Source: Blastomonas sp. AAP53 (lineage in GTDB: Bacteria > Pseudomonadota > Alphaproteobacteria > Sphingomonadales > Sphingomonadaceae). Taken from it: a stretch of DNA of 64,000 bases. The notes under the pieces were generated by a model. That model searched no databases. It was not told the DNA's origin and was given only the letters and a program-made list of their open reading frames with translations. The position numbers were made by a program, and so were the translations under genes. Location: NCBI RefSeq assembly GCF_000331245.1, contig NZ_ANFZ01000002.1, positions 72,001 to 136,000 on the forward strand, written 5' to 3'. Positions within the stretch are counted from its first letter, which is position 1. The number at the start of each line of letters is the position of its first letter. Positions 9,053-53,563 of the stretch are shown here, in pieces.

Positions 9053-9268
9053 GGTCTTGACCCTCCCCTGGGCGCGATCTGCCGCGCCGCGCGTGGGCGC
9101 GCAGCATCACGGCCGGATCATGGCCTTGTGCAGCTCAGCCTAGCGGATGCCGTAGGGTCCGCGACTGTCATTTTTGACACTTGAGGCATTGGGGTCCGCC
9201 AGTCATTTTCGCGCAGCATGAGAAAAGGTGCGGGCAAAAAAGGCCGCAGCATTGAGGGGAGGGTTACG

Positions 9269-11581: not shown

Positions 11582-11665
11582 TCCACTTCAAGGCCCGCGC
11601 TCCGGTTGCACCCGGCGGGCGGGCCTTGATCCCCACCGACAACATGGGATCGCAAACGCTCCGCC

Positions 11666-13126: not shown

Positions 13127-13132
13127 GGGCCC

Positions 13133-14692: not shown

Positions 14693-14702
14693 CGCGCCCC
14701 CG

Positions 14703-14807
14703 CCGCCTGTCCCGAGCCCTTCGGCTGGCTGGTAAGCCATCCGCTCAGGGTAAACTAAAGTCGAGGGACCTGCGCGTACGTCCCTCGACTTCGCTCGGGA
14801 CAGGCGG
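14703..14807. repeat. Nested palindromic repeat, related to the one at 5694
   Basis: Outer arms at 14703-14716 and 14794-14807 are exact 14-bp reverse complements. A second, inner palindrome has 12-bp arms at 14758-14769 and 14780-14791 with the AAGTCGAGGGAC core shared with the 5694-5760 repeat. The whole fills the gap between the CoA ligase and MDR genes and could fold into a two-stem RNA. The segment CCGCTCAGGG inside it also recalls the repeat at 28841-28963. Confidence 0.8.
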
Positions 14808-14839
14808 ATTTTGATTGTTCAATCACAGGAGCCAGACAT

Positions 14840-15838
14840 ATGACCACCACCCGCCAATGGCTGATCGCAGGCCGCCCGCGCGGCCGCCCCGTGGAAGACA
14901 GCGATTTCGAACTGGTCACCAAAGAGCTGCCCGCACCTGGGCCCGGCCAGATGCTGCTCAAGACGCACTATCTGGGCTTCGACCCTGCGCAGAAGGGCTG
15001 GATGGAGAACATCGCCGATTATGTCGCGCCAACCGAGATCGGCGAGGTGATGCGCGGATCGGGCATTTCGGAAGTCATCGAATCGCACGGCGGCAAATTC
15101 CCCGTCGGAACGATGGTGATCGGATCGACCGGCTGGACCGAATTTCATCTCTCCGACGGCGAGGGGCTGGTACCGTGCGATCCTTCGCTGCCGCCAACCG
15201 CGATGATGTCGGTGCTCGGCACCACGGGCCTGACCGCCTATTGCGGGCTGTTCAAGATCGGCAAGCCGGTGGCGGGCGATACGGTGCTCGTCTCTGGCGC
15301 CGCCGGTGCGACCGGATCGATCGTCGGCCAGCTCGCCAAGCTCGCCGGGTGCCGCGTGATCGGCATCGCGGGCGGGCCGGACAAATGCGCGTGGCTGGTC
15401 GACGAGGCCGGCTATGACGCCGCGATCGACTACAAGGCGGGCGGATTGAAGGCGGCGATCAAGCAGCATTGCCCGAATGGCGTCGATGTCATCTTCGACA
15501 ATGTCGGCGGCGCGATCCTCGACGATATGCTCAGCCAGATTGCCACCGGCGCGCGCGTCGTCATCTGCGGCGGCATCAGCCGCTACGAGACCGGGCAGAT
15601 GCCCGCCGGCCCGCAGAACTATTTCAACCTGATCTTCCGCCGCGCGACGATGACCGGGTTCATCGTGCTCGACTGGGCGGCGGAGTTTCCGCTGATCCGC
15701 AAACGGCTGGCGGCGTTCGTCCAGGAGGGGCGGCTGACCTATCGCGAGGATATCCAGCACGGGTTCGAGAACGCACCGCAGGCGATGCAGCGATTGTTCT
15801 CGGGCGCCAACCGCGGCAAGCAGATGCTGAAGCTGTAG
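14840..15838 (+). CDS. Zinc-free MDR family NADP-dependent oxidoreductase
   Basis: This 332-residue reductase is in the same family as the gene at 3879. It has FDPAQKGWME in the N-terminal part, SGAAGATGSIVGQLAK as cofactor loop, and an IFDNVGG strand, with no zinc ligands. It would reduce an enone or alkenal double bond with NADPH. ATG at 14840 follows a CAGGAG ribosome-binding site. It lies downstream of the cleavage oxygenase and ligase genes but is separated from them by a palindromic repeat, so co-regulation is likely but not certain. Confidence 0.92.
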   Translation: MTTTRQWLIAGRPRGRPVEDSDFELVTKELPAPGPGQMLLKTHYLGFDPAQKGWMENIADYVAPTEIGEVMRGSGISEVIESHGGKFPVGTMVIGSTGWTEFHLSDGEGLVPCDPSLPPTAMMSVLGTTGLTAYCGLFKIGKPVAGDTVLVSGAAGATGSIVGQLAKLAGCRVIGIAGGPDKCAWLVDEAGYDAAIDYKAGGLKAAIKQHCPNGVDVIFDNVGGAILDDMLSQIATGARVVICGGISRYETGQMPAGPQNYFNLIFRRATMTGFIVLDWAAEFPLIRKRLAAFVQEGRLTYREDIQHGFENAPQAMQRLFSGANRGKQMLKL

Positions 15839-23721: not shown

Positions 23722-23941
23722 CCGAGCAATGCCGTCCAGAGCCGCCTATCCCCCTGTTTCATGGGGTTTTCATGCGGATTTCGGGCTGCTGCACGTCTGA
23801 GGGCGGCTGGCTGGCGCAAGAATATGTGTCCAGCCAGCAACACTGGCCTTTAATCGTAATCGCCCATGCGCGGACGCGTTGCGTTTAATGTCGCGTCCGG
23901 TAACTTCCCCGATCAACAAAGTCGTCAAGCAGGGGATAATC

Positions 23942-26900
23942 ATGGTCAAGAACAATAGAGGTCTACACAGGGCTATCAGCGGCGGCGTCGCCGCCTCCGC
24001 GATGGCAGTGGCGCTGGCTGCCGCTCCGGCTCTTGCAATCGAGGCCAATGCCAGTTCAGCCTCCGATATCCGCAATTTGCTGACCGCCGATGGCCTGTCA
24101 CCGCATTTCGATTCCAGCCTGAACCTCATGGATGCCAAGCCGGAGCCGCATTCGATGCGTCTCGACATTCAGGATGTCGAGCTGGATCCGCAGATCCTGA
24201 TCGCCAACCCCGGCACCCCCACCACCGCGCGTGATCCCGTCAACATCACCGGCGTCGCCCAGATGGTGGTCGATAACGGCAATGGCGGTGTCGGTCTGTG
24301 CACCGGTTCGCTGATCAATCCGCGCACCGTGCTGTTTGCCGCACACTGCGTGAACAGCCGTGCCGCAACGGCCTATGGCGCCAATTCGGGCGGCGTCGCC
24401 ATCGCCTTCGGGTTCGAAACCAACACCCGCGCCAACGCACCGGGCCAGGTCGACGAACTGGTTCGCTGGCTGCTTGGCACCAATGGTCAGGGTCGCTTCC
24501 AGACCAACACCGCACAGGCTTTGTACAACGTGAATGCGGTGGCCTATCACCCGCGTTCGGTCGAGCCGGGCAACGGCTTCCTCTATGCCGATATCGCGGT
24601 CGCCTCGCTCGACACACCCGCCGTCGGCATTCCGACCTGGTCGCTGCTGCTGTCGCAGCTGCCCCAGCCGACCGCGATCACCGCTGCCAGCGGCACCGGT
24701 TATCACGTGAACCTGGCCGGCTATGGCGGCAACGGTACCGGAACCTCTGGCACGCTGCCGATCGACTTCCGCCGCCGTACCGCCGAAAACTGGCTGGGCG
24801 CGCTGACCTCGCTCGATGATTTCCAGGCGTTTCTGTTCGGCGCGCCTCCCGAAGGTCTGCCGCAGAACCTGTACTGGATCGACTTCGACGATCCGCGTCG
24901 TGGCACAGCTGCGGCCAGCCCGTTCGATTTCAACGCCTTTCGCGATAACGCACTGCCCCGTGAAGGGACCACCGCAGGTGGCGATTCGGGCGGCCCGCTG
25001 ATCCTCGACCGCACTTTCACGCGCGAAGTGATCATCGGCGTGCTGTCGGGTGGCTATACGCGCTTCTTCAACGGCCAGCCCGCCAACGGCTTCGGCACCG
25101 CCTCGTTCTATCAGCCGCTCTACCTGTATTGGGACTGGATCGCAGAGAACAACCCGTATCGCTACGTGTCGGCCAATGCCGGCAGCCGCAACTGGAACGA
25201 CCCGACGCACTGGATCACGACCCAGGATCCCAATTACTTCATCATCGGTCCCGACGGCCAGCTCATCAACGGCACCCCATCTTCGGCTGGCGGCACCACG
25301 GTGGATACCAGCGGCAAGTTCGGCCAGGCCTGCTTCCAGTCAGGCGGCCTCAGCGAGTGCGTCGACTTCAGCACCGGCACCACCACGGTCGAGCGCAAGC
25401 CGATCGGCACGGGTAGCGAAAGCGACAATGCAGGAACCGCAACCATTGCCAGCGGCATTGGCGAAGCGGTGGTCGAAAGCGCCGCAGCAACAGCGCAGAT
25501 CGCGGCGACCGACCCTGTCGGCCAGGCCACCATCGCGCTGCCGCCGGCATCCATCGCCAACGGTCTGCCAGGGGCGACCAACTTCGTTCCCAACAACACC
25601 GCCGGCAACCGTACCGCAGGCATCCTGCCGCGCTATTTCGACGTGACCCTGTCGGCTGCCGGCACGACCACGCTCGACAGCACGGTGACCATCGACCGCT
25701 TCCGCCTGAACGGCGCAGCGGCCGCACTCAACATCACCTCGACCGGTTCGCTGACCAGCCTGATCGATGTCACGCAGACCATCGGTTCGATGCAGGTCAA
25801 TGGCCGGCTGACGTCGGTGGGTGACTATTTCATGATGACCGGCGGCCTGAGCGGCACCGGCACCGTGAAGGCGCCGTTCTTCACCAGCGTTGCAGGCACC
25901 ATCTCTCCGGGTGCCACAGGCAATGCCGGCAACATCGGCACGCTGACCATCGACGGCAACGTCATCCTTTCATCGGCGACGCAGTTCAATGTCGATGTTG
26001 GCAACGGCGTGTCGGATCGACTTGCCATCACCGGCAACGCCAGCCTGGGTGGCCGCGTGGTCGTCTCGCCGGTGCCCGGCTATACAATCAAGAACGGCGA
26101 CACCTATCGCATCGTCACCACGGGCGGCACGATCTCGGCAGGGTTCAACTCCGCCGCCCCGATCAGCGCCATCCTGACGCCGGTGCTCACCACCAGCGCC
26201 AATGCCGTCGACATGCGCATCACCGCAGGCCAGTATCGCAACGTTATTGTGGCGGGATCGCGCGTCCAGTCGTCCTATGCGAGCATTCTGGACAGCAATC
26301 GCGCGGCAGCCGGCACCTATTCGGACGTCTTCCTGCGCACTGACCTCATGTCGGCCGCGCAGATCCAGGCGACGTTCGAATCGCTGGCACCGTTCGCAGA
26401 ATCGACCCGGCTCAGCATGAGCGAGTCGATGCTGTCGAGCACATCACGCTTCCACCGCACCCGCATGCAGTCGGCCTTGTCCGGCGATATGGGCGGTACG
26501 GTCGCGATGATCGGCCAGCCGCTCAACCTTGCTGCCACTGCCACCAGCGGCGCGGTACTGCCGGGTGCGATGGCGGCGGCTGCAGCGGGTCAGGACGCGC
26601 AGGAAACCGTGATGGAATCGCCGTCGCTGGGCAGCGATTATGCGATCTATCTGGGTGGCGGCTATCTCAACGGCAAGTCCACGCCGATGCCGACCTCGCT
26701 GACCAATGGCCGGCAGGATAATTTCGACGGTTATTTCGTTGTCGGCGGCTTTGAATATCTGCCGCGCGATGGTGTCGTGCTGGGTATCTCGGCGAGCTAC
26801 TCGGATGTCGACGCCAACGTCGTCCGCGGCCAGCAGGCATCGGGCAGGTTGCTGGAAGGCAGCGTCTATGGTGCGGTGACCACGCCGGGCGGCATGATCG

Positions 26901-27466
26901 TCGACGGCCGTGTCAGCGCAGGCAGCTTCAAGGTCGATACCGCGCGCAGCGTGGCAGTCGGCACTGGACTGTTCAACCTGGCAACCCAGGACGATAGCCT
27001 GGCGATCACCGCGGAACTGGGCCTTTCGGCTCCGATCGAAGGCAAGTCTGTCGTCGTCACTCCGCGTGTTGCCGCCCAGTATCAGTATATCGGCTTTGAC
27101 GATGTGCGTGAAACCGGGGGCGGTCCGGCTCTGGATATCGATCGCAACAAGTTCGATAGCCTGCAGATCCGCACCGGCCTGTCGGCCAGCGCCAAGAAGA
27201 CCGCCGTGTTCCGGCCCTATATCTACGCCGATTTCGTCTATGACGTGCTGGAAGGCGACCGGTTCTTCGGTGCCAACTTCGCAGGCAGCACCACGGGCCG
27301 CTTCCCGTTTGCCTATCGCGCGGATGACCGCACCTGGGCAGAAACGGGCGTGGGCCTGACGATCTCGCAGCCGACCTTCGACTTCACCGCGTCGATCGAC
27401 ACCACGGTGGGTCGCCAGGACTTCCAGGCACAACAATACTCGCTCTCGGCGCTGGTCCGCTTCTAA
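23942..27466 (+). CDS. Autotransporter with trypsin-like serine protease passenger
   Basis: The 1174-residue protein has a long signal peptide (ending ALA near residue 33). A trypsin-fold protease at about residues 80-400 has the complete triad: His135 in LFAAHC, Asp217 in ADIAVASLD, Ser349 in GGDSGGP. A Gly/Thr/Ala-rich beta-helical passenger of about 450 residues follows. A C-terminal autotransporter barrel from about residue 880 ends in the aromatic SALVRF. It would be exported by Sec, inserted in the outer membrane, and expose or release a protease. The start at 23942 fits the signal peptide. A strong terminator follows, so it is monocistronic. Substrate unknown. Confidence 0.92.
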   Translation: MVKNNRGLHRAISGGVAASAMAVALAAAPALAIEANASSASDIRNLLTADGLSPHFDSSLNLMDAKPEPHSMRLDIQDVELDPQILIANPGTPTTARDPVNITGVAQMVVDNGNGGVGLCTGSLINPRTVLFAAHCVNSRAATAYGANSGGVAIAFGFETNTRANAPGQVDELVRWLLGTNGQGRFQTNTAQALYNVNAVAYHPRSVEPGNGFLYADIAVASLDTPAVGIPTWSLLLSQLPQPTAITAASGTGYHVNLAGYGGNGTGTSGTLPIDFRRRTAENWLGALTSLDDFQAFLFGAPPEGLPQNLYWIDFDDPRRGTAAASPFDFNAFRDNALPREGTTAGGDSGGPLILDRTFTREVIIGVLSGGYTRFFNGQPANGFGTASFYQPLYLYWDWIAENNPYRYVSANAGSRNWNDPTHWITTQDPNYFIIGPDGQLINGTPSSAGGTTVDTSGKFGQACFQSGGLSECVDFSTGTTTVERKPIGTGSESDNAGTATIASGIGEAVVESAAATAQIAATDPVGQATIALPPASIANGLPGATNFVPNNTAGNRTAGILPRYFDVTLSAAGTTTLDSTVTIDRFRLNGAAAALNITSTGSLTSLIDVTQTIGSMQVNGRLTSVGDYFMMTGGLSGTGTVKAPFFTSVAGTISPGATGNAGNIGTLTIDGNVILSSATQFNVDVGNGVSDRLAITGNASLGGRVVVSPVPGYTIKNGDTYRIVTTGGTISAGFNSAAPISAILTPVLTTSANAVDMRITAGQYRNVIVAGSRVQSSYASILDSNRAAAGTYSDVFLRTDLMSAAQIQATFESLAPFAESTRLSMSESMLSSTSRFHRTRMQSALSGDMGGTVAMIGQPLNLAATATSGAVLPGAMAAAAAGQDAQETVMESPSLGSDYAIYLGGGYLNGKSTPMPTSLTNGRQDNFDGYFVVGGFEYLPRDGVVLGISASYSDVDANVVRGQQASGRLLEGSVYGAVTTPGGMIVDGRVSAGSFKVDTARSVAVGTGLFNLATQDDSLAITAELGLSAPIEGKSVVVTPRVAAQYQYIGFDDVRETGGGPALDIDRNKFDSLQIRTGLSASAKKTAVFRPYIYADFVYDVLEGDRFFGANFAGSTTGRFPFAYRADDRTWAETGVGLTISQPTFDFTASIDTTVGRQDFQAQQYSLSALVRF

Positions 27467-38283: not shown

Positions 38284-39681
38284 TCAGTAATTGTAAGCCC
38301 GTTCGCCATGCTCGCCGAGGTCGAGGCCTTCGCGCTCCACTTCAGGGGAGACACGCAGTCCGGTCACCAGCTTGGCGATGTAGAAGGCGATGGCAGAGCC
38401 GACGGCAGCCCAGACAATGGCAACACCGACAGCCATGATCTGGATGACCAGCTGTCCGCCGAGGTCGTAATCTTCGGCGCCGGGACCACCCAGAGCGGGC
38501 AGCATGGTGACAGCCGTTCCGATTGAGCCGACGATGCCGCCCAGACCGTGGATGCCGAAGGCGTCCAGCGAGTCGTCAAAGCCGAGCTTGGGCTTGATCT
38601 TCATGACGAAGATGCAGCAGATGACCGCAGTGACCGCGCCGAGCAGAATGGCACCGAACGGGCCGGAGTTGCCTGCAGCGGGGGTCACGGCGACGAGGCC
38701 TGCGATGGCACCCGAGCATGCGCCCAGCAGCGAGCCCTGGTGGCCGATCGCCTTTTCGGTCAGCATCCAGAACAGCACGCCTGCAGCCGTGGCGACGAAG
38801 GTGTTGATCAGGGCAAGGCCTGCCGAACCGTTTGCTTCCAGCGCGGAGCCGGCGTTGAAGCCGAACCAGCCCACCCACAGCAGACCGGTACCGATCAGGG
38901 TCATGGTCAGCGAGTGCGGTGCCATCACGTCCTTCTGATAGCCCAGACGCTTGCCCAGGATGATCGCGCCGACCAGTGCCGAGATGCCCGCGTTGATGTG
39001 CACCACGGTGCCGCCAGCGAAGTCCAGAGCGCCCCAGTCGAAGAGCAGGCCGGTGGTTTCAGGCGTTGCGCCCGCATACCAGACCATGTGCGCGATCGGG
39101 AAATAGACGATGGTCAGCCACACCGTGGCGAAAACCATCAGCGCGGAGAACTTCATCCGTTCCACCAGACCGCCGATGACCAGCGCCACGGTGATGGCGG
39201 CAAAGGTCATCTGGAAGGCGATGAACACGAATTCGGGGATCTGGAAGCCTTCCGAGAAGGTCGCAGCGGTCGAATCCGCGGTTACACCGGCGAGGAAGAA
39301 CTTGCCGGTGGAGATGAACTGGTTGGCATCGCCACCAAAGGCCAGGCCATAGCCGTAGACGACCCAGATGATCATCGCGAGGCTGGCCACGGCGATGACC
39401 TGGGTCAGCACCGAGAGCATGTTCTTGGTGCGGACAAGGCCGCCATAGAAAAGGGCGAGGCCGGGTACGATCATCGCCATGACCAGCACGGTGGCCATGA
39501 TCATCCAGGCGGTATCGCCCTTGTCGACAACCGGAACGACTTCAGCGGCGGCTTCGGCAACCGCCGGGGCGGCCTCGGCAACCTCTTCGGCCACTTCCTG
39601 CGCCCAGGCCTGGGCCGATACGAAAAACGAAAGCGCGGCCGTCCCGACAGCGGCGCCAATCTTGTGCAAAGGTTTCATCAT
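38284..39681 (-). CDS. amtB: Ammonium transporter
   Basis: The 465-residue AmtB conducts ammonium across the inner membrane. It has a cleavable signal (ending AWA), a Glu/Ala-rich N-terminal linker, then 11 transmembrane helices with the family motifs MIVPGLALFYGGLVR, DFAGGTVVHINAG (first pore His) and the FDDSLDAFGIHGLGG stretch (second pore His). The 12-base spacing from glnK and the shared sigma-54 promoter show co-expression. Start is one of two adjacent ATGs. Confidence 0.96.
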   Translation of the reverse strand: MMKPLHKIGAAVGTAALSFFVSAQAWAQEVAEEVAEAAPAVAEAAAEVVPVVDKGDTAWMIMATVLVMAMIVPGLALFYGGLVRTKNMLSVLTQVIAVASLAMIIWVVYGYGLAFGGDANQFISTGKFFLAGVTADSTAATFSEGFQIPEFVFIAFQMTFAAITVALVIGGLVERMKFSALMVFATVWLTIVYFPIAHMVWYAGATPETTGLLFDWGALDFAGGTVVHINAGISALVGAIILGKRLGYQKDVMAPHSLTMTLIGTGLLWVGWFGFNAGSALEANGSAGLALINTFVATAAGVLFWMLTEKAIGHQGSLLGACSGAIAGLVAVTPAAGNSGPFGAILLGAVTAVICCIFVMKIKPKLGFDDSLDAFGIHGLGGIVGSIGTAVTMLPALGGPGAEDYDLGGQLVIQIMAVGVAIVWAAVGSAIAFYIAKLVTGLRVSPEVEREGLDLGEHGERAYNY

Positions 39682-39693
39682 TCCCCTTTCCCC

Positions 39694-40032
39694 TTACAGT
39701 GCCGTGTCGCCGGTTTCGCCGGTGCGGATGCGCGTGGCAGCCGCCAGGTCGAAAACGAAGATCTTGCCGTCACCGATGGAATCCGTGTTTGCAGCTGCCT
39801 GGATGGTTTCCACCACCTGCGGCGCCATGTCGTCGCTGACCGCGATCTCAAGCTTGAGCTTGGGGACCATGTTGGTGGTGTATTCAGCGCCGCGATAGAT
39901 TTCGGTCTGGCCCTTCTGGCGGCCAAAGCCTTTCACCTCGGTCACGGTCATGCCCGCGACGCCCAGGCTGGTCAGGGCTTCGCGCACCTCGTCCAGCCGG
40001 AACGGTTTGATTATGGCAATGATGAATTTCAT
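39694..40032 (-). CDS. glnK: PII nitrogen regulatory protein
   Basis: The 112-residue PII protein senses 2-oxoglutarate/ATP and gates AmtB. Tyr51 in RGAEYTTNMVPK is the uridylylation site, and the T-loop, KPFRLDEV N-terminus and the B-loop GDGKIFVFDL are intact. It is paired with amtB, hence GlnK rather than the glnA-linked GlnB. GlnD, encoded at the right end of the window, would modify Tyr51. Its ribosome-binding site is AAAGGGGG. Confidence 0.96.
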   Translation of the reverse strand: MKFIIAIIKPFRLDEVREALTSLGVAGMTVTEVKGFGRQKGQTEIYRGAEYTTNMVPKLKLEIAVSDDMAPQVVETIQAAANTDSIGDGKIFVFDLAAATRIRTGETGDTAL

Positions 40033-44137: not shown

Positions 44138-44338
44138 GCGCTGCTGCCCACGCGGCCCCTACCGCTGGCGGAAGCATTATGATATTCAAACGGCGGGAGA
44201 CATTTGTTTCGTTTGCCGGAACCGGGCTTTGCGATTTGGGAATCGTGATGGATCGGGACGGCAGGAGAGCTGCGAACTCATGCCTTCATTTCCCCTATTC
44301 CGCCCTTTCAGGCCCGTCCGCTGACGGCGCTGGTTCCG

Positions 44339-47300
44339 GTGGCAGCCCCCGCCATTTCACCCCGCAGCAACCCGCTGACCGACTCGGCCAGCTGGACCGC
44401 GATGCGCAATGCCTGTGTCGCCGATCCGGGCGCTTTCCACGGACTGCAGGCGCGCTCCGCGATCTGCTGGTACCTGCCTGATCACAACGCCTGGGCTCAT
44501 TTCGACCAGGACGCAGGATGCTGGACCGGCTGGGATGCGGATACAGGTGCGGCGCGACAGCTCGATCTGGCGCACGATTACATGCCCTGGGCGCGCGGCC
44601 TCAACGCCGATGATGCACCCAATTGGCGTTGGTTCGAAGGCGCGTTCACCAACAGCGGCTTCAACGAGGTCGATCGGCATGTCGTCGCGGGCCATGGCGC
44701 TGAAACTGCGCTGATCTTCGAGGGCGACCGCTGGAATATGTCGAGCGACAACGGTCGCGGCGGCCCGGTCGATTGCTATCCGGTATCGCGCAAACAGCTG
44801 ATGCTCGAGGCGGCGAAATGCTCGCTGGCACTGACGGCTCTCGGCCTCAAGGCGGGTGACCGCATCGCGCTCAACATGCCCTCGATCCCGGCGCAGATCT
44901 ACTGGACCGAAGGCGCCAAGCGCGCGGGCATCATCTATACACCGGTGTTCGGCGGGTTCAGCGACAAGACGCTGTCCGATCGCATCGCCGACGCCGGCGC
45001 CAAGATCGTGATTACCGCCGATGGCAGCTATCGCAACGCGCAGATGGTGCCGTTCAAGACCAGCTACACCGATCCGGCGCTCGACAATTTCATCGGCGTC
45101 GGCACCGCGATGGGTCTGCTCGCGGTCGCGCTCGACGACCCCGCGCTCGAGGTCAGCGATGCTGCGCGCGCGCGGATCACCGAGGCGGTCACCGAATTGC
45201 TCGACGGCGAGGTCACCGTCGAACGCTCCGACGTCATGCGCGGCGTCGGCCGGGCGCTCGACGATCTGGCGCAAGGCTCAGCGATGACTGCAGCGCAGGC
45301 CGCGAACCTGCGGATGGCGATCGCGTCTGCCTTGGTCGATTCGCCACCGCGCGTCGACGCGGTGGTGGTGGTCCGCCACACCGCGCAGCCCGACCTCGTC
45401 TGGAATTCGAATCGCGATCACTGGAGCCATGACCTCACGGGCCACGCGAGCGCGCAGATCCTGGAGGCGGCGCGCGGACTCGGGATCGCTGTGGCGGATG
45501 AAGCGGCGCTGCTGGCGCTGCCCGACGCGGACTTTGTCCGCGCGATCTGGGCGGCGTCGAAGCCGCTGCCGGTGGATTCGGAATATCCCAATTTCATCAT
45601 CTATACCTCGGGCTCGACCGGAAAGCCCAAGGGCGTGGTGCACGTCCACGGTGGCTATTGCGCGGGCGTTGCCGCGACGATGCCGGTGGCATTCGATGCT
45701 GCGCCCGGCGATGTCATGTTCGTCGTCGCCGATCCGGGCTGGATCACCGGCCAGAGCTATCTGATCGCAGGCTCGCTGCTGTGCCGGGTGACGACGATCA
45801 TCACCGAAGGATCGCCGGTCTTCCCGCATGCAGGCCGCTTTGCCTCGATCATCGAGCGGCACAAGGTGCAGATCTTCAAGGCGGGCGTCACCTTCTTGAA
45901 AAGCGTGATGCAGGATCCGGAGAACCTCAAGGACATCCAGAATTACGACATGTCGTCGCTCAAGGTCGCAACCTTCTGCGCCGAGCCGACCTCGCCTTCG
46001 GTGCAGGCGTTTGGCATGGAGCATGTCACGCCCTGGTATATCAACAGCTATTGGGCGACCGAGCATGGCGGCATCGCCTGGACGCACTTCTACGGCAACA
46101 CCGATTTCCCGCTGAGGGCTGACGCGCACACCTATCCGCTGCCGTGGATCGTCGGCGATGTCTGGGTCGAGGACCCGGACGCGCCGCCGCTCGAATTCGG
46201 GCTGGAGCGCGATGGGTCCGGGGGCGTACCATGGCGACGCGCGAAAAATGGCGAGAAGGGCGAGATCGTCATCGCTCTGCCCTATCCGTATCTCACCCGC
46301 ACCATCTGGGGCGATACCGACCATTTCACGCTGGAGCAGCACGCGGGCGGGTTGCGGATCAATCCGGAATGGCGCGGCGACTCGGACCGGTATTCTTCGA
46401 CCTATTGGGAACGCTGGCGCGGCACCTGGGCCTATACCCAGGGTGATTTCGCCATCCGGCACGAGGACGGATCGTTCTCGCTGCACGGCCGCTCGGACGA
46501 CGTGATCAATGTCTCGGGTCATCGCATCGGCACCGAAGAAATCGAAGGCGCGATCCTGCGCGACAAGACGCTCGATCCCAATTCTCCGGTGGGCAACGTG
46601 CTCGTCGTCGGCGCGCCGCACCGCGAGAAGGGCGCAACGCCGATCGCGTTCGTCACCGCTGTTGCCGGACGCAGGCTGACGCAGGACGACCGCCGCCGCC
46701 TGACCGATCTGGTCCGCACCGAAAAGGGCGCGGTTGCGGTGCCGTCCGATTTCCTCGAGGTGTCCGAATTTCCGGAAACCCGCTCGGGCAAGTACATGCG
46801 CCGCATGGTCCGCGCGATTGTAGAGGGCGGCGAGATCGGCGACACCTCGACGCTGCGCAATCCCGGCAGCATCGAGGCGCTGCAGACAGCGGTGGCCGCC
46901 TGGCGGCGCAAGCAGACGCTGGCCGAGGAACAGGCGCTGTTCGAGCGCTACCGCTATTTCCTGATCCAGTACAATCACCTGGGTGACGGCAAGCGCGTCG
47001 CGACAGTCACCGTCACCAACGCGCCGGTCAACGCGCTCAACGAACGGGCGATCGACGAGCTGGTGATCGTGGTCGAGCATCTCGCGCGCAAGGACGACGT
47101 GATTGCGGTGGTGTTCACAGGCCAGGGCACCGCCTCGTTCGTCGCGGGCGCGGATATCCGCCAGATGCTCGAAGAGGTGAACAGCGTCGAGGAAGCAGGC
47201 GTCCTGCCCAGCAATGCGCAGCTCGCATTCTCCAAGATCGAGAACATGGGAAAGCCGTGCATCGCGGCGATCCAGGGCGTGGCTTTGGGCGGTGGCATGG

Positions 47301-49831
47301 AGTTCGCGCTCGCCTGCCATTACCGCATCGCCGAACCCGTCGCGCGCTTCGGCCAGCCCGAGATCAACCTGCGGTTGCTCCCCGGCTATGGTGGCACGCA
47401 GCGGCTGCCGCGGCTGCTCGCCGAACGGCGCGCGGGCGAGGGGCTGCGCGATGCGCTCGACCTGATCCTGGGTGGCCGCGCGATCAGCGCCGACGAGGCG
47501 CTGGAGATCGGCGCGATCGAACAGGTCGCAGATGCCTCGAACGATGTGCTCAGCCTCGCGCATGGCATGGTGCGCGAGTTCGCGCGGCATGGCGCGGAAA
47601 GCCCGCTGGGCAAGGCGTTTGCCGACCGCAAGGCGATGACCAAGCGCTGGGCCAATCCGGCGCATATCGATCTCGATGCGGTGCTAGAGGACCCGTTCCT
47701 CCAGCGCATCCTGCGCCAACTCGACTGGGCTGGGCGTGGGCCGGCGGGTAGGCGGGCGCTCGATGCCGTCCGCACCGGCTGGACCGAGGGCATGGCCGCG
47801 GGGCTCAAGCGCGAGGGCGAGCATTTCGCCGAGGCGATCATCGATCCCGAAGGCGGCAAGACCGGCATCCGCCAGTTCATGGACAAGCAGTCGCCGCCGC
47901 TACCGGTGCGCCGCAACGGTGTGTGGATCGATGCCGAGCATGAGGACAACAAGGCCGAGATGATCGCATCGGGCCAGTTGCTGCCCGTCGGCGCGCCTTT
48001 CTATCCCGGCGTGACCGCGATTCCCGCCAAGCAGCTCGCCTTCGGCATCAGTCGCGATCCCGACACCGGCGCACCGCGTTTCGGGCCTCCGGCGTCCCAC
48101 GAGCGCGAGCATATCGTGCCCGTCGTGGCACCAGAGCCCAACGAGGCCCTGGTCTACATGCTGACCAGCGAGGTCAACTTCAACGATATCTGGGCGCTCA
48201 CCGGCATTCCGGTGTCACCGTTCGATGCCCATGACGAGGACGTCCAGATCACCGGTTCGGGCGGCCTGGCCTTGGTCGCGGCGCTGGGCAGCGAGGTCAA
48301 GGGCGAAGGCCGGTTGCGTGTGGGTGACATGGTGGTGGTGTATTCAGGGACCAGCGATCTGCTCTCTCCGCAGGCTGGCGACGACCCGATGTTCGCAGGC
48401 TTCGCGATCCAGGGCTATGAGACCAAGACCGGCAGCCACGCGCAGTTCCTCAACGTCCAGGGGCCGCAGCTGCACCGCGTGCCCCCCGATCTGACGCTCG
48501 AACAGGCAGGCAGCTATGTGCTCAACCTGGGCACCATCACCCGCGCCTTGTTCACCACGCTGCAGATCGTGCCGGGCAGGACGATCTTCGTCGAAGGCTC
48601 GGCCACCGGCACCGGGCTCGATGCGCTGAAAAGCAGCATCAAGTCGGGCCTCAAGGCGACCGGACTCGTCTCCAGCGCGGACCGCGCGGCCTTCGTCAAG
48701 GAACAGGGCGCGGTTGGCGCGCTGAACCGCAAGGACCCGCAGCTTTCGGCGCTGTTCACCGCCGTTCCCGATGATCCTGACGAAGCCCGGGCATGGGAGG
48801 CCGATGGCACGCCACTGCTCGACGAATACCGGCGGATCAACAATGGATCGCTGGCAGATTTCGTCGTCAGCCATGCCGGCGAAACCGCCTTCCCGCGCAG
48901 TTTCCAGCTGCTCGAGGAGAACGGGACGCTGGCCTTCTACGGCGCATCATCGGGCTATCACTTCGCCTTCATGGGCAAGACCGGCAGCGCCTCGCCCTCT
49001 GACATGCTGGCGCGTGCGCAGTTGCGCGGCGGCGAATCGGTGCTGTTGTACTACGGCCCCGGCAGCCGCGATCTGGCCGATCCATTGGGGCTCGAGATGA
49101 TCGAGGCGGCGCGGCTGTACAAGGCGCGCACCGTGATCGTCACCACCACCGATGGCCAGCGCGAGTTCCTGCAGTCTTTGGGGCTGGAGGAATCGGTCGA
49201 GGGGATCATCAGCCTGGAAGGCCTGAAGCGCCGCGACAGCGAATTCCTCTGGCCCGACAGCCTGCCGCGCCTGCCCGATGCCCGCACCGATATCGAACGG
49301 TTCAAGGAGGGCGTGCGCAGCTATCAGCAGCGGACGATGAAACCTTTCGGTACCGCGGTGGGCCGCATCCTGGGTTCGCCCGGCAATCCGCGCGGGGTGC
49401 CCGATCTGGTGATCGAGCGCGCCGGGCAGGACTCGCTCGGCGTCTCGACATCGCTGGTGAAGCCCTTCGGCGGGCGCGTGGTCTATGCCGAGGAGATGGC
49501 GGGCCGTCGTTACACCTTCTACGCGCCGCAGGTCTGGACCCGGCAGCGCCGGATCATCATGCCCACCGCCAACATCTTCGGCACGCACCTGTGCAATGCG
49601 CATGAGGTGACGATGATGAACAACATGATCGCAGGCGGGCTGCTCAGCGTCACCGAACCACAGGTGGTCGACTGGGACGGGCTGCCGGAGGCGCATCAGG
49701 CGATGTGGGACAACCGCCACACCGGCGCGACCTATGTCGTCAACCACGCGCTGCCCGCGATGGGCCTGCGCAGCCGCGACGAGCTGCTCGAATACTGGGC
49801 CGCATCTCAGGGCATCATGGGCAACACTTGA
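44339..49831 (+). CDS. pcs: Trifunctional propionyl-CoA synthase (3-hydroxypropionate pathway)
   Basis: The 1830-residue protein fuses three enzymes that together reduce 3-hydroxypropionate to propionyl-CoA using ATP, CoA and NADPH. Residues 1-870: acyl-CoA synthetase with ATP loop YTSGSTGKPKG (from Tyr422) and catalytic Lys818 in TRSGKYMRR. Residues about 885-1130: enoyl-CoA hydratase with VAGADIRQML and IQGVALGGGMEFA. Residues about 1230-1830: MDR enoyl-CoA reductase with VEGSATGTG. Length and order match the Chloroflexus enzyme (about 1822 residues). Start is GTG 44339: no in-frame ATG exists after the stop at 44246, and the PRSNP motif near the start is part of the known family N-terminus, which excludes the ATG at 44402. 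Malonyl-CoA reductase follows 42 bp later. Confidence 0.95.
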   Translation: MAAPAISPRSNPLTDSASWTAMRNACVADPGAFHGLQARSAICWYLPDHNAWAHFDQDAGCWTGWDADTGAARQLDLAHDYMPWARGLNADDAPNWRWFEGAFTNSGFNEVDRHVVAGHGAETALIFEGDRWNMSSDNGRGGPVDCYPVSRKQLMLEAAKCSLALTALGLKAGDRIALNMPSIPAQIYWTEGAKRAGIIYTPVFGGFSDKTLSDRIADAGAKIVITADGSYRNAQMVPFKTSYTDPALDNFIGVGTAMGLLAVALDDPALEVSDAARARITEAVTELLDGEVTVERSDVMRGVGRALDDLAQGSAMTAAQAANLRMAIASALVDSPPRVDAVVVVRHTAQPDLVWNSNRDHWSHDLTGHASAQILEAARGLGIAVADEAALLALPDADFVRAIWAASKPLPVDSEYPNFIIYTSGSTGKPKGVVHVHGGYCAGVAATMPVAFDAAPGDVMFVVADPGWITGQSYLIAGSLLCRVTTIITEGSPVFPHAGRFASIIERHKVQIFKAGVTFLKSVMQDPENLKDIQNYDMSSLKVATFCAEPTSPSVQAFGMEHVTPWYINSYWATEHGGIAWTHFYGNTDFPLRADAHTYPLPWIVGDVWVEDPDAPPLEFGLERDGSGGVPWRRAKNGEKGEIVIALPYPYLTRTIWGDTDHFTLEQHAGGLRINPEWRGDSDRYSSTYWERWRGTWAYTQGDFAIRHEDGSFSLHGRSDDVINVSGHRIGTEEIEGAILRDKTLDPNSPVGNVLVVGAPHREKGATPIAFVTAVAGRRLTQDDRRRLTDLVRTEKGAVAVPSDFLEVSEFPETRSGKYMRRMVRAIVEGGEIGDTSTLRNPGSIEALQTAVAAWRRKQTLAEEQALFERYRYFLIQYNHLGDGKRVATVTVTNAPVNALNERAIDELVIVVEHLARKDDVIAVVFTGQGTASFVAGADIRQMLEEVNSVEEAGVLPSNAQLAFSKIENMGKPCIAAIQGVALGGGMEFALACHYRIAEPVARFGQPEINLRLLPGYGGTQRLPRLLAERRAGEGLRDALDLILGGRAISADEALEIGAIEQVADASNDVLSLAHGMVREFARHGAESPLGKAFADRKAMTKRWANPAHIDLDAVLEDPFLQRILRQLDWAGRGPAGRRALDAVRTGWTEGMAAGLKREGEHFAEAIIDPEGGKTGIRQFMDKQSPPLPVRRNGVWIDAEHEDNKAEMIASGQLLPVGAPFYPGVTAIPAKQLAFGISRDPDTGAPRFGPPASHEREHIVPVVAPEPNEALVYMLTSEVNFNDIWALTGIPVSPFDAHDEDVQITGSGGLALVAALGSEVKGEGRLRVGDMVVVYSGTSDLLSPQAGDDPMFAGFAIQGYETKTGSHAQFLNVQGPQLHRVPPDLTLEQAGSYVLNLGTITRALFTTLQIVPGRTIFVEGSATGTGLDALKSSIKSGLKATGLVSSADRAAFVKEQGAVGALNRKDPQLSALFTAVPDDPDEARAWEADGTPLLDEYRRINNGSLADFVVSHAGETAFPRSFQLLEENGTLAFYGASSGYHFAFMGKTGSASPSDMLARAQLRGGESVLLYYGPGSRDLADPLGLEMIEAARLYKARTVIVTTTDGQREFLQSLGLEESVEGIISLEGLKRRDSEFLWPDSLPRLPDARTDIERFKEGVRSYQQRTMKPFGTAVGRILGSPGNPRGVPDLVIERAGQDSLGVSTSLVKPFGGRVVYAEEMAGRRYTFYAPQVWTRQRRIIMPTANIFGTHLCNAHEVTMMNNMIAGGLLSVTEPQVVDWDGLPEAHQAMWDNRHTGATYVVNHALPAMGLRSRDELLEYWAASQGIMGNT

Positions 49832-49873
49832 AAACATCAGCCGCCGGGAACGGCGCGGCAGGGGATTACCGAC

Positions 49874-52800
49874 ATGACGAGCAGCAAGACCAAGGCGACC
49901 AAGACGGGCGCAACCGCCGATACCGGGACCGGGGGACGGCTTTCGGGCAAGGTGGCTCTGGTCACCGGCGCTGCGGGCAATCTGGGCGGCGCGATCATTC
50001 GCCGCTTCATCGGCGAAGGCGCGACCCTGGTGATGACCGGACGCACTGCGGAGCGGCTCGATGCAGCCAAGGTGGCGCTGCTCGCCGAGACCGGGGTGGA
50101 CGAGGCGCGCGTCTTCACCGTGATCCTCGATGGGGCAGACCCTGAGTCGGTGCGCGCAGGCATCGAGACCGTAAAGGCCGCGCTCGGCCGGATCGACATA
50201 TTGGTCAACAACGCAGGCTCGGCAGGACCCCGCCAGACGCTCGAGAATGTGCCGCTCACCCGCGCCGAGATGGAAGCGAACGGCGATAGCGAGACGGTCG
50301 CCGATGCGATGCGCAACCTGCTGGGCGTCAGCTGGAACCTGACGCGCGCCGCCGCCCCGATCATGCCGGTGGGCGGATCAGTGGTGAACATCTCGACGAT
50401 CTTTTCGCACACCCGCTATTATGGCCGCACCGCCTATGTCGTCCCCAAGGCGGCGCTGAATGCGCTGAGCCAGGAGCTCGCCAAGGAGCTGGGCGCCAAC
50501 GGAATCCGCGTGAACACCGTGTTCCCCGGCCCGATCGAAAGCGAGCGCATCCGCACCGTGTTCGCGGCGATGGACGCGCTGCAGGGCGAGGCGGAGAACA
50601 CCACCGCCAACCACTTCATGGGTCGCATGACATTGGAGCGCGCCGTCGGCAGCGCACCCAAGCAGAAGACTTTGCCCGTTCCTGGCGACATTGCCGATGC
50701 CTGCCTGTTCCTCGCCAGCGATGAATCCGCCGCGCTCAATGGTAACGAGATCGACGTCACCCATGGCATGCAGGTGCGCAAGGATTCGCGCTCGACCTAT
50801 ATGACGCGGCCATCGATGCGGTCATTGGATGGCGCGGGGCTGACTGTGCTGATCGCCGCGGGCGAGGCGTGGGAAGACGCGCTCGAAATGGCCAAGATCC
50901 AGGCGGCGTGCGGTGCGCGCGTGCTGCTGGGCATGACCCGCCAGGTCGATGTGGCCCAAGCCGAAGCGCGGGTGAAGGCGCAATCGGCGGAGGAAGGCCT
51001 CACCATCATGCGCTTCAACCGCGCCGAGCCCGAAGGCATGGAAGCGGCGATCCGCGCCTATTCGGACGCGCATGGCGCGATCCACAGCGCAATCGTGCTG
51101 CCGGTCAAGCCCGCCGACCATTTCGGCGACAGTCTTGTGGCGGCATCCGATGCCGAGGTCGATGCGCTGATCGATGTCGAACTGACCGGGGCGATTGCGG
51201 TCGCGCGCACGCTGCGGCGCTATTGGAAAACGCGCACCGACCTGATGCAGGATCCGCGCTTCGTGTTCATGTCGAGCCCCAGCGACGGCAAGGGCAACAA
51301 GGCGGCGAAAATCCTGACGGCCGCGATCGCGCAGCTGATCACCATCTGGCGCGACGAATCGCGGGTCGATTTCGCGCAAGGCCGCCAGAAGCGCGCCGCC
51401 TGGGGCAACCAGATCGTGCGCTACACCAATGCCGAGGACGAGAACACGCGCTTTGCTGCAGGGCACGCGACGCGGATCGTGTTCAAGGAGCAGAAGATCG
51501 CCGAAACCTCGCTGTACCTTCCCGCCAACATCGGCGAGGAAACCGGCGCGCGGCGGGCAATGCTGGGCTTTGCCGAGAACATCACCGGCCTGCACCTGGG
51601 CAAGGTCGCTTTGATCACCGGGGGCTCGGCCGGGATCGGCGGACAGGTGGCGCGGTTGCTCGCGCTCGCCGGCGCCAAGGTGATGATGGTCGCGCGCCGC
51701 GAGAGCGAGCTCGAGGCCGCGCGCGAACGCATCGTCGGCGAACTGCAGGATGTCGGCTTTTCGGGCGTCGAACGCCGGATCAAGTTCATCGCCAATGTCG
51801 ATGTCAGCGATTTCGATTCGCTGCGCAAGGCGGCAGACGCGACGATGGAAGAGTTCGGGCGGATCGATTACCTGATCAACAACGCCGGTGTCGCAGGCGC
51901 CGAAGACATGGTCATCGACATGCCGCTCGACACCTGGCGCTGGACGCTCGATGCCAACCTCATCAGCAACTATCTGCTGATGCATTATGTCGTGCCGATC
52001 ATGAAACGCCAGGGGTCGGGCTATATCCTCAATGTTTCCAGCTATTTCGGCGGTGAAAAGTTCCTCGCGGTCGCCTATCCCAACCGCGCCGATTATGCGG
52101 TGTCCAAGGCGGGGCAGCGCGCGATGGTGGAGAGCTTCTCGCGCTTCCTGGGCCCCGAAATCCAGGTCAACGCCATCGCGCCCGGCCCGGTCGACGGCGA
52201 CCGCTTGTCGGGCACCGGCGGCAAGCCTGGCCTCTTCCTGCGCCGCGCCCGCCTGATCCTCGAGAACAAGCGGCTGAATGCGATCTATGCCGCCGTCATC
52301 GAATCGATCCGCGAGGGCGCGGAGGTCACGCATGTGCTGGGCCGTCTTGCGCGTAACGACACCGGCTATCTCAGCCACGACCGTTCGACGCCCGATCCGC
52401 TGCGGCTGCTGTGCCTCGAGCTGGCGCGCGAAGGCGACGGCATCTGCACCTGGGACCGCTATCTGCTCACCCCCGAGATCGCCGGGCGGCTGCTCGCGCG
52501 GCTGCGCTCTGCGGGCTATCTGCTGCAGCATGCCGATTGGCAGGAGCGCAGCGGCACCAACGACGGCCTCACCGGCTGGCTGATGGTTACCCCGCCCGAT
52601 GACATGCCGTATCTGCCGCAGGACCGGATCGGCAAGGAGGCCGACAAGGTCGGGAGTGGCGTATTATCGCAGCTGCATCTGGGCGCGATGCCCAAGGAAA
52701 GCGAAGTCGCCCAAGCCACGGTGTTCTACCTCGCCGACCGTGCGGTGAGCGGCGAGACGTTCAAGCCATCGGGGGGCTTGAGCGTCGAACGATCGTACAC

Positions 52801-53563
52801 CGAGCGCGAGATGTTCGGCAGCCCCAAGCAGGAACGGCTCGACCAGATGGCGGACAAGACCGTGTGGGTGTTCGGCGAGCATCTGGCCGATTACATTGCC
52901 GAAACCGCAGGCCATCTCATCGGTGATCTCGATGTCGCGCATGTCGTGCTGCTCACCCGCAGCTCCGATGGCGGCGCGAGCGTGATGGCGCTGCTCGACC
53001 CGGCCATTGCGGCCAAGGTGACCGTGCGCGTGTGCGGCGCGGATGTCGAAGCCGCGATGGACCAGGCGCTCACCGACTTCGGGCGCCCGACGACAGTGGT
53101 GTCCACCCCGATGGCGGCGCTGCCCGACCGTCTGTTCGACGAGGGCGCGATGCTGGCTCCGGAAGAATTCCGCGAGCTGTGCGAGGAGAACCTCACCCAC
53201 CATTTCCGCGTGGCGCGCAAGGCATCGCTGTATGACGGCTGCCAGCTGGTGCTGGTCTCGCCCGACGTGCCCTTCGGCCAGAGCGGACCCGCGTTTGCGC
53301 TCGCCAATTTCGTCAAGACGACGCTGCATGCGTTCACGGCGACGCTGGCGGTGGAAAACGAGCGGCTGGTGCACGATGTGCCCACCAACCAGATCAACCT
53401 GACGCGCCGTGTACGCTCCGAAGAACCGCGCAATGCCATCGAGCACCAGGAGGAGCTGAAACGCTTCGCCCGCGCGGTGCTGCTGGTCGGCGCTCCGCTG
53501 CCCGACGCGCAGGATTCGCGGTACAGGGCGCGGATCTACAGGGGTACGTCGATGACGGTGTGA
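49874..53563 (+). CDS. mcr: Bifunctional malonyl-CoA reductase
   Basis: The 1229-residue enzyme consists of two tandem SDR halves. It reduces malonyl-CoA to malonate semialdehyde and then to 3-hydroxypropionate with NADPH. N-terminal half: TGAAGNLGG (residues 31-39) and Tyr188/Lys192 in TAYVVPK; in the Chloroflexus enzyme this half reduces the semialdehyde. C-terminal half: GGSAGIGG (583-590), NVSSYFGGEK, and Tyr741/Lys745 in DYAVSK; this half reduces the CoA ester. All catalytic residues are intact in both halves, and LSGETF-like VSGETFKPSGGL and NFVKTTLHAFTATL are family-specific. It lies 42 bp after propionyl-CoA synthase. No Rossmann degeneration was seen, so full bifunctionality is likely. 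Confidence 0.95.
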   Translation: MTSSKTKATKTGATADTGTGGRLSGKVALVTGAAGNLGGAIIRRFIGEGATLVMTGRTAERLDAAKVALLAETGVDEARVFTVILDGADPESVRAGIETVKAALGRIDILVNNAGSAGPRQTLENVPLTRAEMEANGDSETVADAMRNLLGVSWNLTRAAAPIMPVGGSVVNISTIFSHTRYYGRTAYVVPKAALNALSQELAKELGANGIRVNTVFPGPIESERIRTVFAAMDALQGEAENTTANHFMGRMTLERAVGSAPKQKTLPVPGDIADACLFLASDESAALNGNEIDVTHGMQVRKDSRSTYMTRPSMRSLDGAGLTVLIAAGEAWEDALEMAKIQAACGARVLLGMTRQVDVAQAEARVKAQSAEEGLTIMRFNRAEPEGMEAAIRAYSDAHGAIHSAIVLPVKPADHFGDSLVAASDAEVDALIDVELTGAIAVARTLRRYWKTRTDLMQDPRFVFMSSPSDGKGNKAAKILTAAIAQLITIWRDESRVDFAQGRQKRAAWGNQIVRYTNAEDENTRFAAGHATRIVFKEQKIAETSLYLPANIGEETGARRAMLGFAENITGLHLGKVALITGGSAGIGGQVARLLALAGAKVMMVARRESELEAARERIVGELQDVGFSGVERRIKFIANVDVSDFDSLRKAADATMEEFGRIDYLINNAGVAGAEDMVIDMPLDTWRWTLDANLISNYLLMHYVVPIMKRQGSGYILNVSSYFGGEKFLAVAYPNRADYAVSKAGQRAMVESFSRFLGPEIQVNAIAPGPVDGDRLSGTGGKPGLFLRRARLILENKRLNAIYAAVIESIREGAEVTHVLGRLARNDTGYLSHDRSTPDPLRLLCLELAREGDGICTWDRYLLTPEIAGRLLARLRSAGYLLQHADWQERSGTNDGLTGWLMVTPPDDMPYLPQDRIGKEADKVGSGVLSQLHLGAMPKESEVAQATVFYLADRAVSGETFKPSGGLSVERSYTEREMFGSPKQERLDQMADKTVWVFGEHLADYIAETAGHLIGDLDVAHVVLLTRSSDGGASVMALLDPAIAAKVTVRVCGADVEAAMDQALTDFGRPTTVVSTPMAALPDRLFDEGAMLAPEEFRELCEENLTHHFRVARKASLYDGCQLVLVSPDVPFGQSGPAFALANFVKTTLHAFTATLAVENERLVHDVPTNQINLTRRVRSEEPRNAIEHQEELKRFARAVLLVGAPLPDAQDSRYRARIYRGTSMTV

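What the first reader, a model, noticed from the sequence alone, without database searches (positions are those of the whole stretch)
44339..53563. Adjacent propionyl-CoA synthase and malonyl-CoA reductase genes: the 3-hydroxypropionate module in an alphaproteobacterium
Seen: two giant genes 42 bp apart, encoding PCS (synthetase + hydratase + reductase) and MCR (two SDR halves), with all catalytic residues present. Known: these are the signature enzymes of the 3-hydroxypropionate bi-cycle of Chloroflexus aurantiacus, and homologues were described in Erythrobacter. Inferred: the cell can convert malonyl-CoA to propionyl-CoA, either as part of CO2 fixation or as a NADPH-consuming route feeding propionyl-CoA. 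The other cycle genes are absent from the window. This is the strongest candidate for an unusual metabolic system here.
Basis: partly seen in the sequence, partly recalled or inferred. Interest (0 to 1): 0.88.

Follow-up and report, generated by a model that had tools for sequence, protein, structure and literature searches.

The report
Phototroph's 3-hydroxypropionate half-cycle gene pair
Two adjacent giant enzymes should let a light-harvesting bacterium turn acetyl units plus carbon dioxide into propionyl-CoA; the pair is already known from related bacteria, and among the sampled genomes of its order it occurs only in those with a photosynthetic reaction centre.

Summary
PCS (44339-49831) and MCR (49874-53563) lie 42 bp apart on the + strand, are full length and keep the class motifs. 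PCS matches 6eqo over residues 14-1830; MCR matches 8hi4. The genome is Blastomonas-like, with reaction-centre genes 71 kb downstream. The pair is not unusual: 273 related stretches, and 70 of the best 80 loci have MCR behind PCS; such enzymes are in print for Erythrobacter NAP1 and Porphyrobacter. The genome has a carboxylase/methylmalonyl-CoA mutase cluster and isocitrate lyase, but no RuBisCO, crotonyl-CoA carboxylase/reductase or true malyl-CoA lyase found. I read it as the open first half of the 3-hydroxypropionate bi-cycle (acetyl-CoA + 2 CO2 to succinyl-CoA, 3 NADPH), for photoheterotrophic CO2 co-assimilation or redox balance, not autotrophy. Two additions: in 296 Sphingomonadales genomes all 23 with PCS have a reaction centre, and 0 of 244 without one have PCS; 33 of 80 loci carry an acetyl-CoA carboxylase alpha gene downstream, usually as third gene, absent in this window's clade.

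The parts
44339..49831 (+). Propionyl-CoA synthase (PCS), 1830 aa; start codon GTG uncertain by some codons
   Evidence: (6eqo_A, 3166 bits, residues 14-1830)
45473..46792 (+). PCS 3-hydroxypropionate:CoA ligase (acyl-CoA synthetase) domain, Pfam-matched core (residues 379-818)
   Evidence: PF00501 and PF13193; motif residues invariant in 78 of 78
46994..47725 (+). PCS enoyl-CoA hydratase (3-hydroxypropionyl-CoA dehydratase) domain, residues 886-1129
   Evidence: PF00378/PF16113; E988 and E1008 invariant in 78 of 78
48005..49828 (+). PCS acrylyl-CoA reductase domain (Ccr-like), residues 1223-1830
   Evidence: (4gi2 crotonyl-CoA carboxylase/reductase, residues 1223-1468), PF00107
49874..53563 (+). 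Bifunctional malonyl-CoA reductase (MCR), 1229 aa
   Evidence: (8hi4_A residues 19-1229; 6k8s, 6k8v)
49967..50770 (+). MCR N-terminal SDR module (residues 32-299); malonate-semialdehyde reductase half (assignment recalled)
   Evidence: PF13561; Y188/K192 64 of 64
51602..52201 (+). MCR C-terminal SDR module (residues 577-776); malonyl-CoA reductase half (assignment recalled)
   Evidence: PF00106; Y741/K745 64 of 64
44195..44282 (+). Conserved non-coding blocks upstream of PCS in the Blastomonas clade (44195-44218, 44231-44245, 44265-44282): candidate promoter or regulatory region, function unknown
   Evidence: alignment of 6 upstream regions; no Rfam match, no sigma-70-like match in this stretch

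Best explanation
The two genes encode a known module, the open first half of the 3-hydroxypropionate bi-cycle, in a Blastomonas-like phototroph (probably an aerobic anoxygenic one, inferred from kin and the reaction-centre genes). Acetyl-CoA is carboxylated to malonyl-CoA. MCR reduces it in two NADPH steps to 3-hydroxypropionate. PCS activates, dehydrates and reduces this to propionyl-CoA (ATP to AMP, 1 NADPH). Propionyl-CoA carboxylase and methylmalonyl-CoA mutase take it to succinyl-CoA. Net: acetyl-CoA + 2 HCO3- + 3 NADPH + ATP gives succinyl-CoA. Shown by sequence: the enzymes, their order, carboxylase and mutase genes, the reaction centre. Inferred from the families: the reactions and their direction. 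Inferred: the purpose is co-assimilating CO2 with organic carbon, and sinking electrons, when light supplies ATP.
For: PCS/MCR identity and intact motifs. AccA and AccD over their cut-offs. A PccB-like / enoyl-CoA hydratase / Mcm / PccA-like cluster at C9:368.8-378.1 kb (Mcm NF006944 1219 bits, cut-off 876). Reaction centre in the same genome. In 296 Sphingomonadales genomes PCS (E <= 1e-150) occurs in 23 of 52 with Photo_RC and 0 of 244 without (Fisher p 3e-20 over genomes, 4e-5 over 79 genera). Of 36 PCS genomes reached through loci, 34 have Photo_RC; at least 2 of the 36 (L012, L035) are the same as sample genomes G284 and G105, by identical coordinates. In 5 of the 10 sample genomes with both on one contig they lie more than 1.2 Mb apart, so hitch-hiking does not explain it (positions). 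An AccA relative lies downstream in 33 of 80 loci; of 31 with a measured gap, 29 begin -4 to 60 bp after MCR, which points to acetyl-CoA as input. A Porphyrobacter paper reports 3HP bicycle genes up by day (passages of PMC10674011).
Against: No activity, flux or expression was measured in this organism. The genome also has isocitrate lyase (NF005074, 1060 bits), so the route is not needed to assimilate acetate. 29 of 52 sampled phototrophs do without PCS. Mcm is in 52 of 52 phototrophs, with or without PCS, so it does not discriminate. This window's clade lacks the downstream accA gene. Outside the order 8 of 27 PCS genomes do have a RuBisCO-family match, 4 of them at E < 1e-130, so the module is not always a stand-in for the Calvin cycle. 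Two of 36 PCS genomes have no Photo_RC match. PccB scored under the nearest NCBIfam model's cut-off (762 of 998.8 bits), so its name rests on Pfam and position. Methylmalonyl-CoA epimerase, AccB and AccC were not searched. The phototroph association is not corrected for shared ancestry.
Confidence: 0.66

Rival explanations
1. Complete autotrophic 3-hydroxypropionate bi-cycle, with the glyoxylate-assimilating half elsewhere in the genome.
For: Relatives of the pair sit beside malyl-CoA lyase in 5 of 80 loci, four titled as Burkholderiales-type or beta proteobacteria and one Gemmatimonadetes (the L048 gene matches 4l7z at 662 bits; that 4l7z is the Chloroflexus enzyme is recalled), and a survey reports full bi-cycles in Burkholderiales and Gemmatimonadota (PMC9802188 passages).
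Against: The window genome has three HpcH proteins, all 24-30% identical to those malyl-CoA lyases; they score best with CitE or RipC models and none reaches the malyl-CoA lyase model's cut-off - though the true-looking L048 and L074 lyases do not reach that haloarchaeal model's cut-off either, so identity is the better test. The Porphyrobacter paper says no full fixation pathway in its strain. Mesaconyl-CoA transferase and hydratases were not searched.
Confidence: 0.05
2. Propionyl-CoA supply: the module feeds odd-chain or methyl-branched lipids or 3-hydroxyvalerate polyesters rather than succinyl-CoA.
For: Full-length PCS occurs on 5 haloarchaeal plasmids, while no plasmid in that collection has an MCR match at E 1e-60; in haloarchaea a 3-hydroxypropionate route to polyester precursors has been described (recalled).
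Against: The genome has a carboxylase/mutase cluster that would drain propionyl-CoA; the tie to reaction centres is not expected. PHA synthase was not searched.
Confidence: 0.12
3. NADPH/electron sink in the light is the main role, with carbon gain secondary.
For: Three NADPH are used per turn (family knowledge); PCS phototrophs in the order sample have no RuBisCO match (0 of 23) and no Ccr over cut-off (0 of 23), usual sinks in purple bacteria (recalled; review passages name redox balance as a role of CO2 fixation on acetate).
Against: 26 of 29 PCS-less phototrophs also lack Ccr over cut-off and 27 of 29 lack RuBisCO, so a sink is not obligatory; aerobic cells can use O2.
Confidence: 0.13
4. 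Substitute for the glyoxylate bypass in acetate assimilation.
For: Acetyl-CoA to propionyl-CoA and on to TCA intermediates is a net anaplerotic route (review passages).
Against: Isocitrate lyase (NF005074, a 531-position model) is present in the window genome; 3 of 23 PCS genomes carry the classic AceA.
Confidence: 0.04

Closest known systems
Propionyl-CoA synthase of Erythrobacter sp. NAP1 (6eqo by recall) and its locus (L012)
   Same: 76% identical, MCR directly downstream, no accA in the 25-kb locus, reaction centre in the genome, same clade in the PCS tree
   Different: Within this clade the window is in a separate six-member Blastomonas group
Bifunctional malonyl-CoA reductases with solved structures (8hi4, 8hjw, 6k8s/6k8v; the enzyme name is recalled, depositors call them SDR proteins)
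   Same: Two SDR halves, similar length, near full-length alignment
   Different: Sequence divergence only; kinetics not known
3-hydroxypropionate bi-cycle of Chloroflexus aurantiacus
   Same: The two signature enzymes; PCS 58% identical to Chloroflexus loci L082 and L084
   Different: In Chloroflexus pcs and mcr are apart (Caur_0613 and Caur_2614, passage; no MCR in L082-L085); no malyl-CoA lyase of that type was found here
3HP co-assimilation genes of Porphyrobacter sp. ULC335
   Same: Phototrophic relative with key 3HP enzymes and no full cycle (passages)
   Different: ULC335 itself was not fetched; four other Porphyrobacter loci (L023, L037, L050, L057) carry accA behind MCR, this window does not

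Membership tests
Propionyl-CoA synthase | Single chain of CoA ligase, enoyl-CoA hydratase and acrylyl-CoA reductase in that order | tested here: met
   match to 6eqo over residues 14-1830
Propionyl-CoA synthase | Class catalytic residues of all three domains | tested here: met
   window identical to the motif residues shared by 78 of 78 sequences; variable among those looked at: K1431 (K 43, R 35), H1755 (mostly Y), and gaps at H1750 (2 rows) and E1756 (1 row)
Propionyl-CoA synthase | 3-hydroxypropionate to propionyl-CoA activity | not testable with these tools
   needs purified enzyme
Bifunctional malonyl-CoA reductase | Two SDR halves, each with Gly-rich motif, Ser and YxxxK | tested here: met
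   (64 of 64 at these positions; one NNAG Asn 63 of 64)
3-hydroxypropionate bi-cycle (complete) | Acetyl-CoA and propionyl-CoA carboxylation, methylmalonyl-CoA mutase | tested here: met
   (epimerase, AccB and AccC not searched; PccB named by Pfam and position)
3-hydroxypropionate bi-cycle (complete) | Trifunctional malyl-CoA/citramalyl-CoA lyase | tested here: not met
   three HpcH proteins, 24-30% identical to the bi-cycle-type lyases of L048 and L074
3-hydroxypropionate bi-cycle (complete) | Mesaconyl-C1-CoA hydratase, mesaconyl-CoA C1-C4 transferase, mesaconyl-C4-CoA hydratase | not tested
Ethylmalonyl-CoA pathway | Crotonyl-CoA carboxylase/reductase | tested here: not met
   best genome match, 152 bits, is PCS itself; cut-off 378.55
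Calvin cycle | RuBisCO large subunit | tested here: not met
   no match in G000
Glyoxylate bypass | Isocitrate lyase | tested here: met
   NF005074 1060 bits, 6g1o 881 bits; malate synthase not searched

The most novel reading that the evidence does not exclude
PCS-MCR is a phototrophy accessory module. The pair spreads and is retained almost only in cells with a type II reaction centre, and works as their light-powered CO2 co-assimilation and electron-sink route without a closed cycle. In one large clade it has captured its own copy of acetyl-CoA carboxylase subunit alpha as a third operon gene; in another lineage it joined malyl-CoA lyase and became a full cycle.
Probability: 0.5. Interest if true: 0.58.

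Novelty: new member of a known kind. Interest (0 to 1): 0.4.

Why it matters
Whether aerobic anoxygenic phototrophs fix meaningful CO2 without RuBisCO is an old question. A two-gene module that in the sampled order occurs only where a reaction centre is present, with carboxylases encoded and no closed cycle found, gives a clean genetic handle: delete the pair, label with 13C-bicarbonate, compare light and dark.

Tried and rejected
Rejected: complete bi-cycle (no bi-cycle-type malyl-CoA lyase). Rejected: module as substitute for a missing glyoxylate bypass. My first isocitrate-lyase search (E 1e-60) gave 0 of 296, but only 3 of the 14 controls rang, against 8 of 14 at the default; with looser settings and NCBIfam the gene is there, so the 0 of 296 is a threshold artefact and is not used. 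Rejected: PpsR-type TGTN12ACA boxes upstream of PCS (motif recalled; 3 of 78 upstream regions, shuffled mean 2.8). Led nowhere: promoter/terminator scan (no more than chance), Rfam (none), plasmid search for MCR (none at 1e-60). The conserved-neighbour search showed, among the families it printed, only one outside PCS-MCR that includes the window locus: an ABC-transporter family in 10 loci, six of them the Blastomonas group and four (L022, L030, L058, L063) at other distances. Not shown: that the downstream AccA is a second copy in its genomes. I had a housekeeping AccA only from the window genome; it falls outside the 31 downstream AccAs with support 93/84, just under the program's star, with a very long E. 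coli outgroup branch. In one search a wrong ORF was picked for L051 (PCS) and L027, L053, L087 (MCR); one search replaces it, leaving out 3 loci without a near-full PCS ORF and 17 without a near-full MCR ORF.
Full report
What is there. Two ORFs on the + strand, 44339-49831 (1830 aa) and 49874-53563 (1229 aa), are separated by 42 bases. Pfam gives the first an AMP-binding ligase, an enoyl-CoA hydratase and a zinc-type reductase domain, and the second two short-chain dehydrogenase modules. The first aligns over residues 14-1830 to 6eqo at 3166 bits (that 6eqo is the NAP1 propionyl-CoA synthase is recalled, the deposited name is 'acetyl-coenzyme A synthetase'). The second aligns over residues 19-1229 to 8hi4 (1173 bits) and by halves to 6k8s and 6k8v (that these are malonyl-CoA reductases is recalled, the depositors call them SDR proteins). 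The motif residues that I named for the ligase and hydratase domains and for both SDR modules are invariant in 78 near-full PCS and 64 near-full MCR sequences, bar one C-half NNAG position in one MCR. In the reductase domain a K/R position varies, and so do three tail positions, one of them mostly Y where the window has H.

How common it is. One scan of 84,980 species genomes found 273 stretches encoding a relative; only the best 80 were kept, so the rest were not looked at. 70 of the 80 have MCR sequence directly behind PCS. Of the other ten, five (L031, L038, L040, L049, L070) have contigs that end just after or inside PCS, and five (Aneurinibacillus L080 and Chloroflexota L082-L085) have no MCR in the sequence held. 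The five nearest relatives, 91-95% identical, are titled Blastomonas (three) and Sphingomonas (two), so I call the organism Blastomonas-like; this rests on this one gene.

Which clade. In a quick PCS tree (SH-aLRT support only) the window lies in a six-member group with those five. That group joins Erythrobacter NAP1, Parasphingopyxis, an Azospirillaceae, a Phyllobacteriaceae MAG and others in a 12-row clade. The other titled Erythrobacteraceae in the tree, apart from L010, fall in a separate clade with Novosphingobium and Sphingomonas. Transfer between families is likely.

The genome around it. The window is G000:C2:72001-136000. Two reaction-centre genes lie at C2:193158-194822, 71 kb beyond PCS. 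Acetyl-CoA carboxylase AccD and AccA and a cluster PccB-like / enoyl-CoA hydratase / methylmalonyl-CoA mutase / biotin-synthase-like / PccA-like (C9:368.8-378.1 kb) supply the flanking steps. PccB scores 762 bits with the nearest NCBIfam model, under its cut-off of 998.8; the PccA-like protein has the propionyl-CoA carboxylase BT domain. Isocitrate lyase is present (NF005074 at 1060 bits, cut-off 446). RuBisCO has no match. The best crotonyl-CoA carboxylase/reductase match is PCS itself, far below cut-off. Three HpcH-family proteins exist; they score best with CitE and RipC models and are 24-30% identical to the bi-cycle-type malyl-CoA lyases below.

Contrast. In 5 of 80 loci (L036, L048, L062, L081 of beta-proteobacterial or Burkholderiales title or kin, and L074, Gemmatimonadetes) a malyl-CoA lyase lies upstream of PCS; the L048 one matches 4l7z at 662 bits. 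This fits a published survey that reports full bi-cycles in Burkholderiales and Gemmatimonadota, and that speaks of organic-substrate co-assimilation where the cycle is incomplete (PMC9802188, passages). The window genome lacks this half as far as tested.

Link to phototrophy. In a sample of 296 Sphingomonadales genomes, 273 of them at least 90% complete, PCS is in 23 and Photo_RC in 52. All 23 are among the 52; none of the 244 others has PCS at E 1e-150 (Fisher p 3e-20 by genome, 4e-5 by genus; neither corrects fully for shared ancestry). I also tested 36 of the 80 locus genomes, picked to cover nearly all records not titled as sphingomonads (L079 was left out) plus several sphingomonads: 34 have Photo_RC. 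At least two of the 36 (L012, L035) repeat genomes of the sample (G284, G105). The two without are a 2.0-Mb Steroidobacteraceae MAG (L066) and Aneurinibacillus (L080). The other 44 locus genomes were not tested. Where both lie on one contig (10 of the 23), the distance is 71-122 kb in five genomes and over 1.2 Mb in five (positions), so physical linkage is not the cause. PCS outside phototrophs exists: five haloarchaeal plasmids hold a full-length PCS at 52% identity, and no plasmid record has an MCR match at E 1e-60. RuBisCO: 0 of 23 PCS and 2 of 29 PCS-less phototrophs of the order; in 27 other PCS genomes 8 have a match, 4 at E < 1e-130. Ccr over cut-off: 0 of 23 and 3 of 29. Mcm: 52 of 52.

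Link to acetyl-CoA. In 33 of 80 loci a relative of acetyl-CoA carboxylase subunit alpha is present. In 29 of 31 with a measured gap its ORF begins -4 to 60 bp after MCR; in L021 the called ORF begins 325 bp inside MCR, probably an overlong start; in L035 it is 2 kb away. The two copies tested pass the AccA models' cut-offs. Of 32 such loci in the PCS tree, 29 fall in one clade, including one Rhodospirillaceae member; L030 and L087 branch beside the window's clade with weak support, and L035 elsewhere; the label needs three changes. The window's own 12-row clade has none. For L065 and L036 the sequence held stops too soon after MCR to judge, although I had labelled them as without. The copies are 59-68% identical to the window genome's own AccA and 72% (median; minimum 62%) to each other. 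This suggests, and does not prove, a paralog travelling with the module, and it points to acetyl-CoA as the input.

Function. The parsimonious reading is an open route from acetyl-CoA to succinyl-CoA with two carboxylations and three NADPH. The Porphyrobacter ULC335 paper (passages) says that strain has key 3HP enzymes like NAP1, no full pathway, and 3HP genes up by day; that is the nearest physiological evidence, in a relative. A bloom-microbiome paper (passage, PMC11089705) says that phototrophs of that kind appear to use an incomplete 3HP bicycle, with propionyl-CoA carboxylase not detected, unlike here. I could not read three primary papers on the cycle and the NAP1 enzyme (not held).

What is new. 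The gene pair and its presumed role are in print. I found no paper stating the restriction to reaction-centre genomes or the accA third gene. The searches were and 76 of an open-access library; of their listings I read passages of eight papers and no whole text, and subscription papers are mostly missing, so this is weak evidence of novelty. The window itself is a new member of a known kind.

Noticed in passing
L013, L014, L016, L018-L027, L030, L035, L037, L039, L042-L044, L046, L047, L050, L052, L053, L057, L071, L075-L077, L079 (also L015 and L087 by tblastn only): A gene for acetyl-CoA carboxylase subunit alpha follows MCR, in most within 60 bp (2 kb in L035): a likely three-gene operon, absent from the window's clade.
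   Followed up: partly
L101 (Natrinema zhouii plasmid) 7968-13421, and four other haloarchaeal plasmids: Full-length PCS (52% identity) on haloarchaeal plasmids with no MCR match on any plasmid, here some 5 kb from a methylmalonyl-CoA mutase: PCS alone may serve another purpose.
   Followed up: partly
L080 (Aneurinibacillus danicus): Full-length PCS in a Bacillota genome without a reaction-centre match and with no MCR on its 10.9-kb contig.
   Followed up: no
L059 10001-17105: The PCS match stops at residue 1503 and an MCR match starts 13 bp later at residue 265: deletion or misassembly in an Erythrobacter MAG.
   Followed up: no
genomes G298 (L010) and G308 (L041): Four Photo_RC matches each, on two contigs: apparently two sets of reaction-centre genes in one genome or MAG (or contamination).
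   Followed up: no
L012 and L010 versus L021, L042, L043, L050, L052: Erythrobacter NAP1 PCS clusters with Blastomonas, away from other Erythrobacteraceae: horizontal transfer of the module is likely.
   Followed up: partly
window 44195-44282: Three conserved blocks in the 200-bp intergenic region before PCS in six Blastomonas-clade genomes; no known motif matched.
   Followed up: partly
window 11666-15838: RPE65-type carotenoid oxygenase, acyl-CoA ligase and zinc-type reductase in a row: looks like an aromatic/stilbenoid catabolic cluster.
   Followed up: no
window 38284-40032: Ammonium transporter and P-II regulator pair on the - strand.
   Followed up: no
window 23879-27466: 1195-aa autotransporter with a short trypsin-like match.
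   Followed up: no
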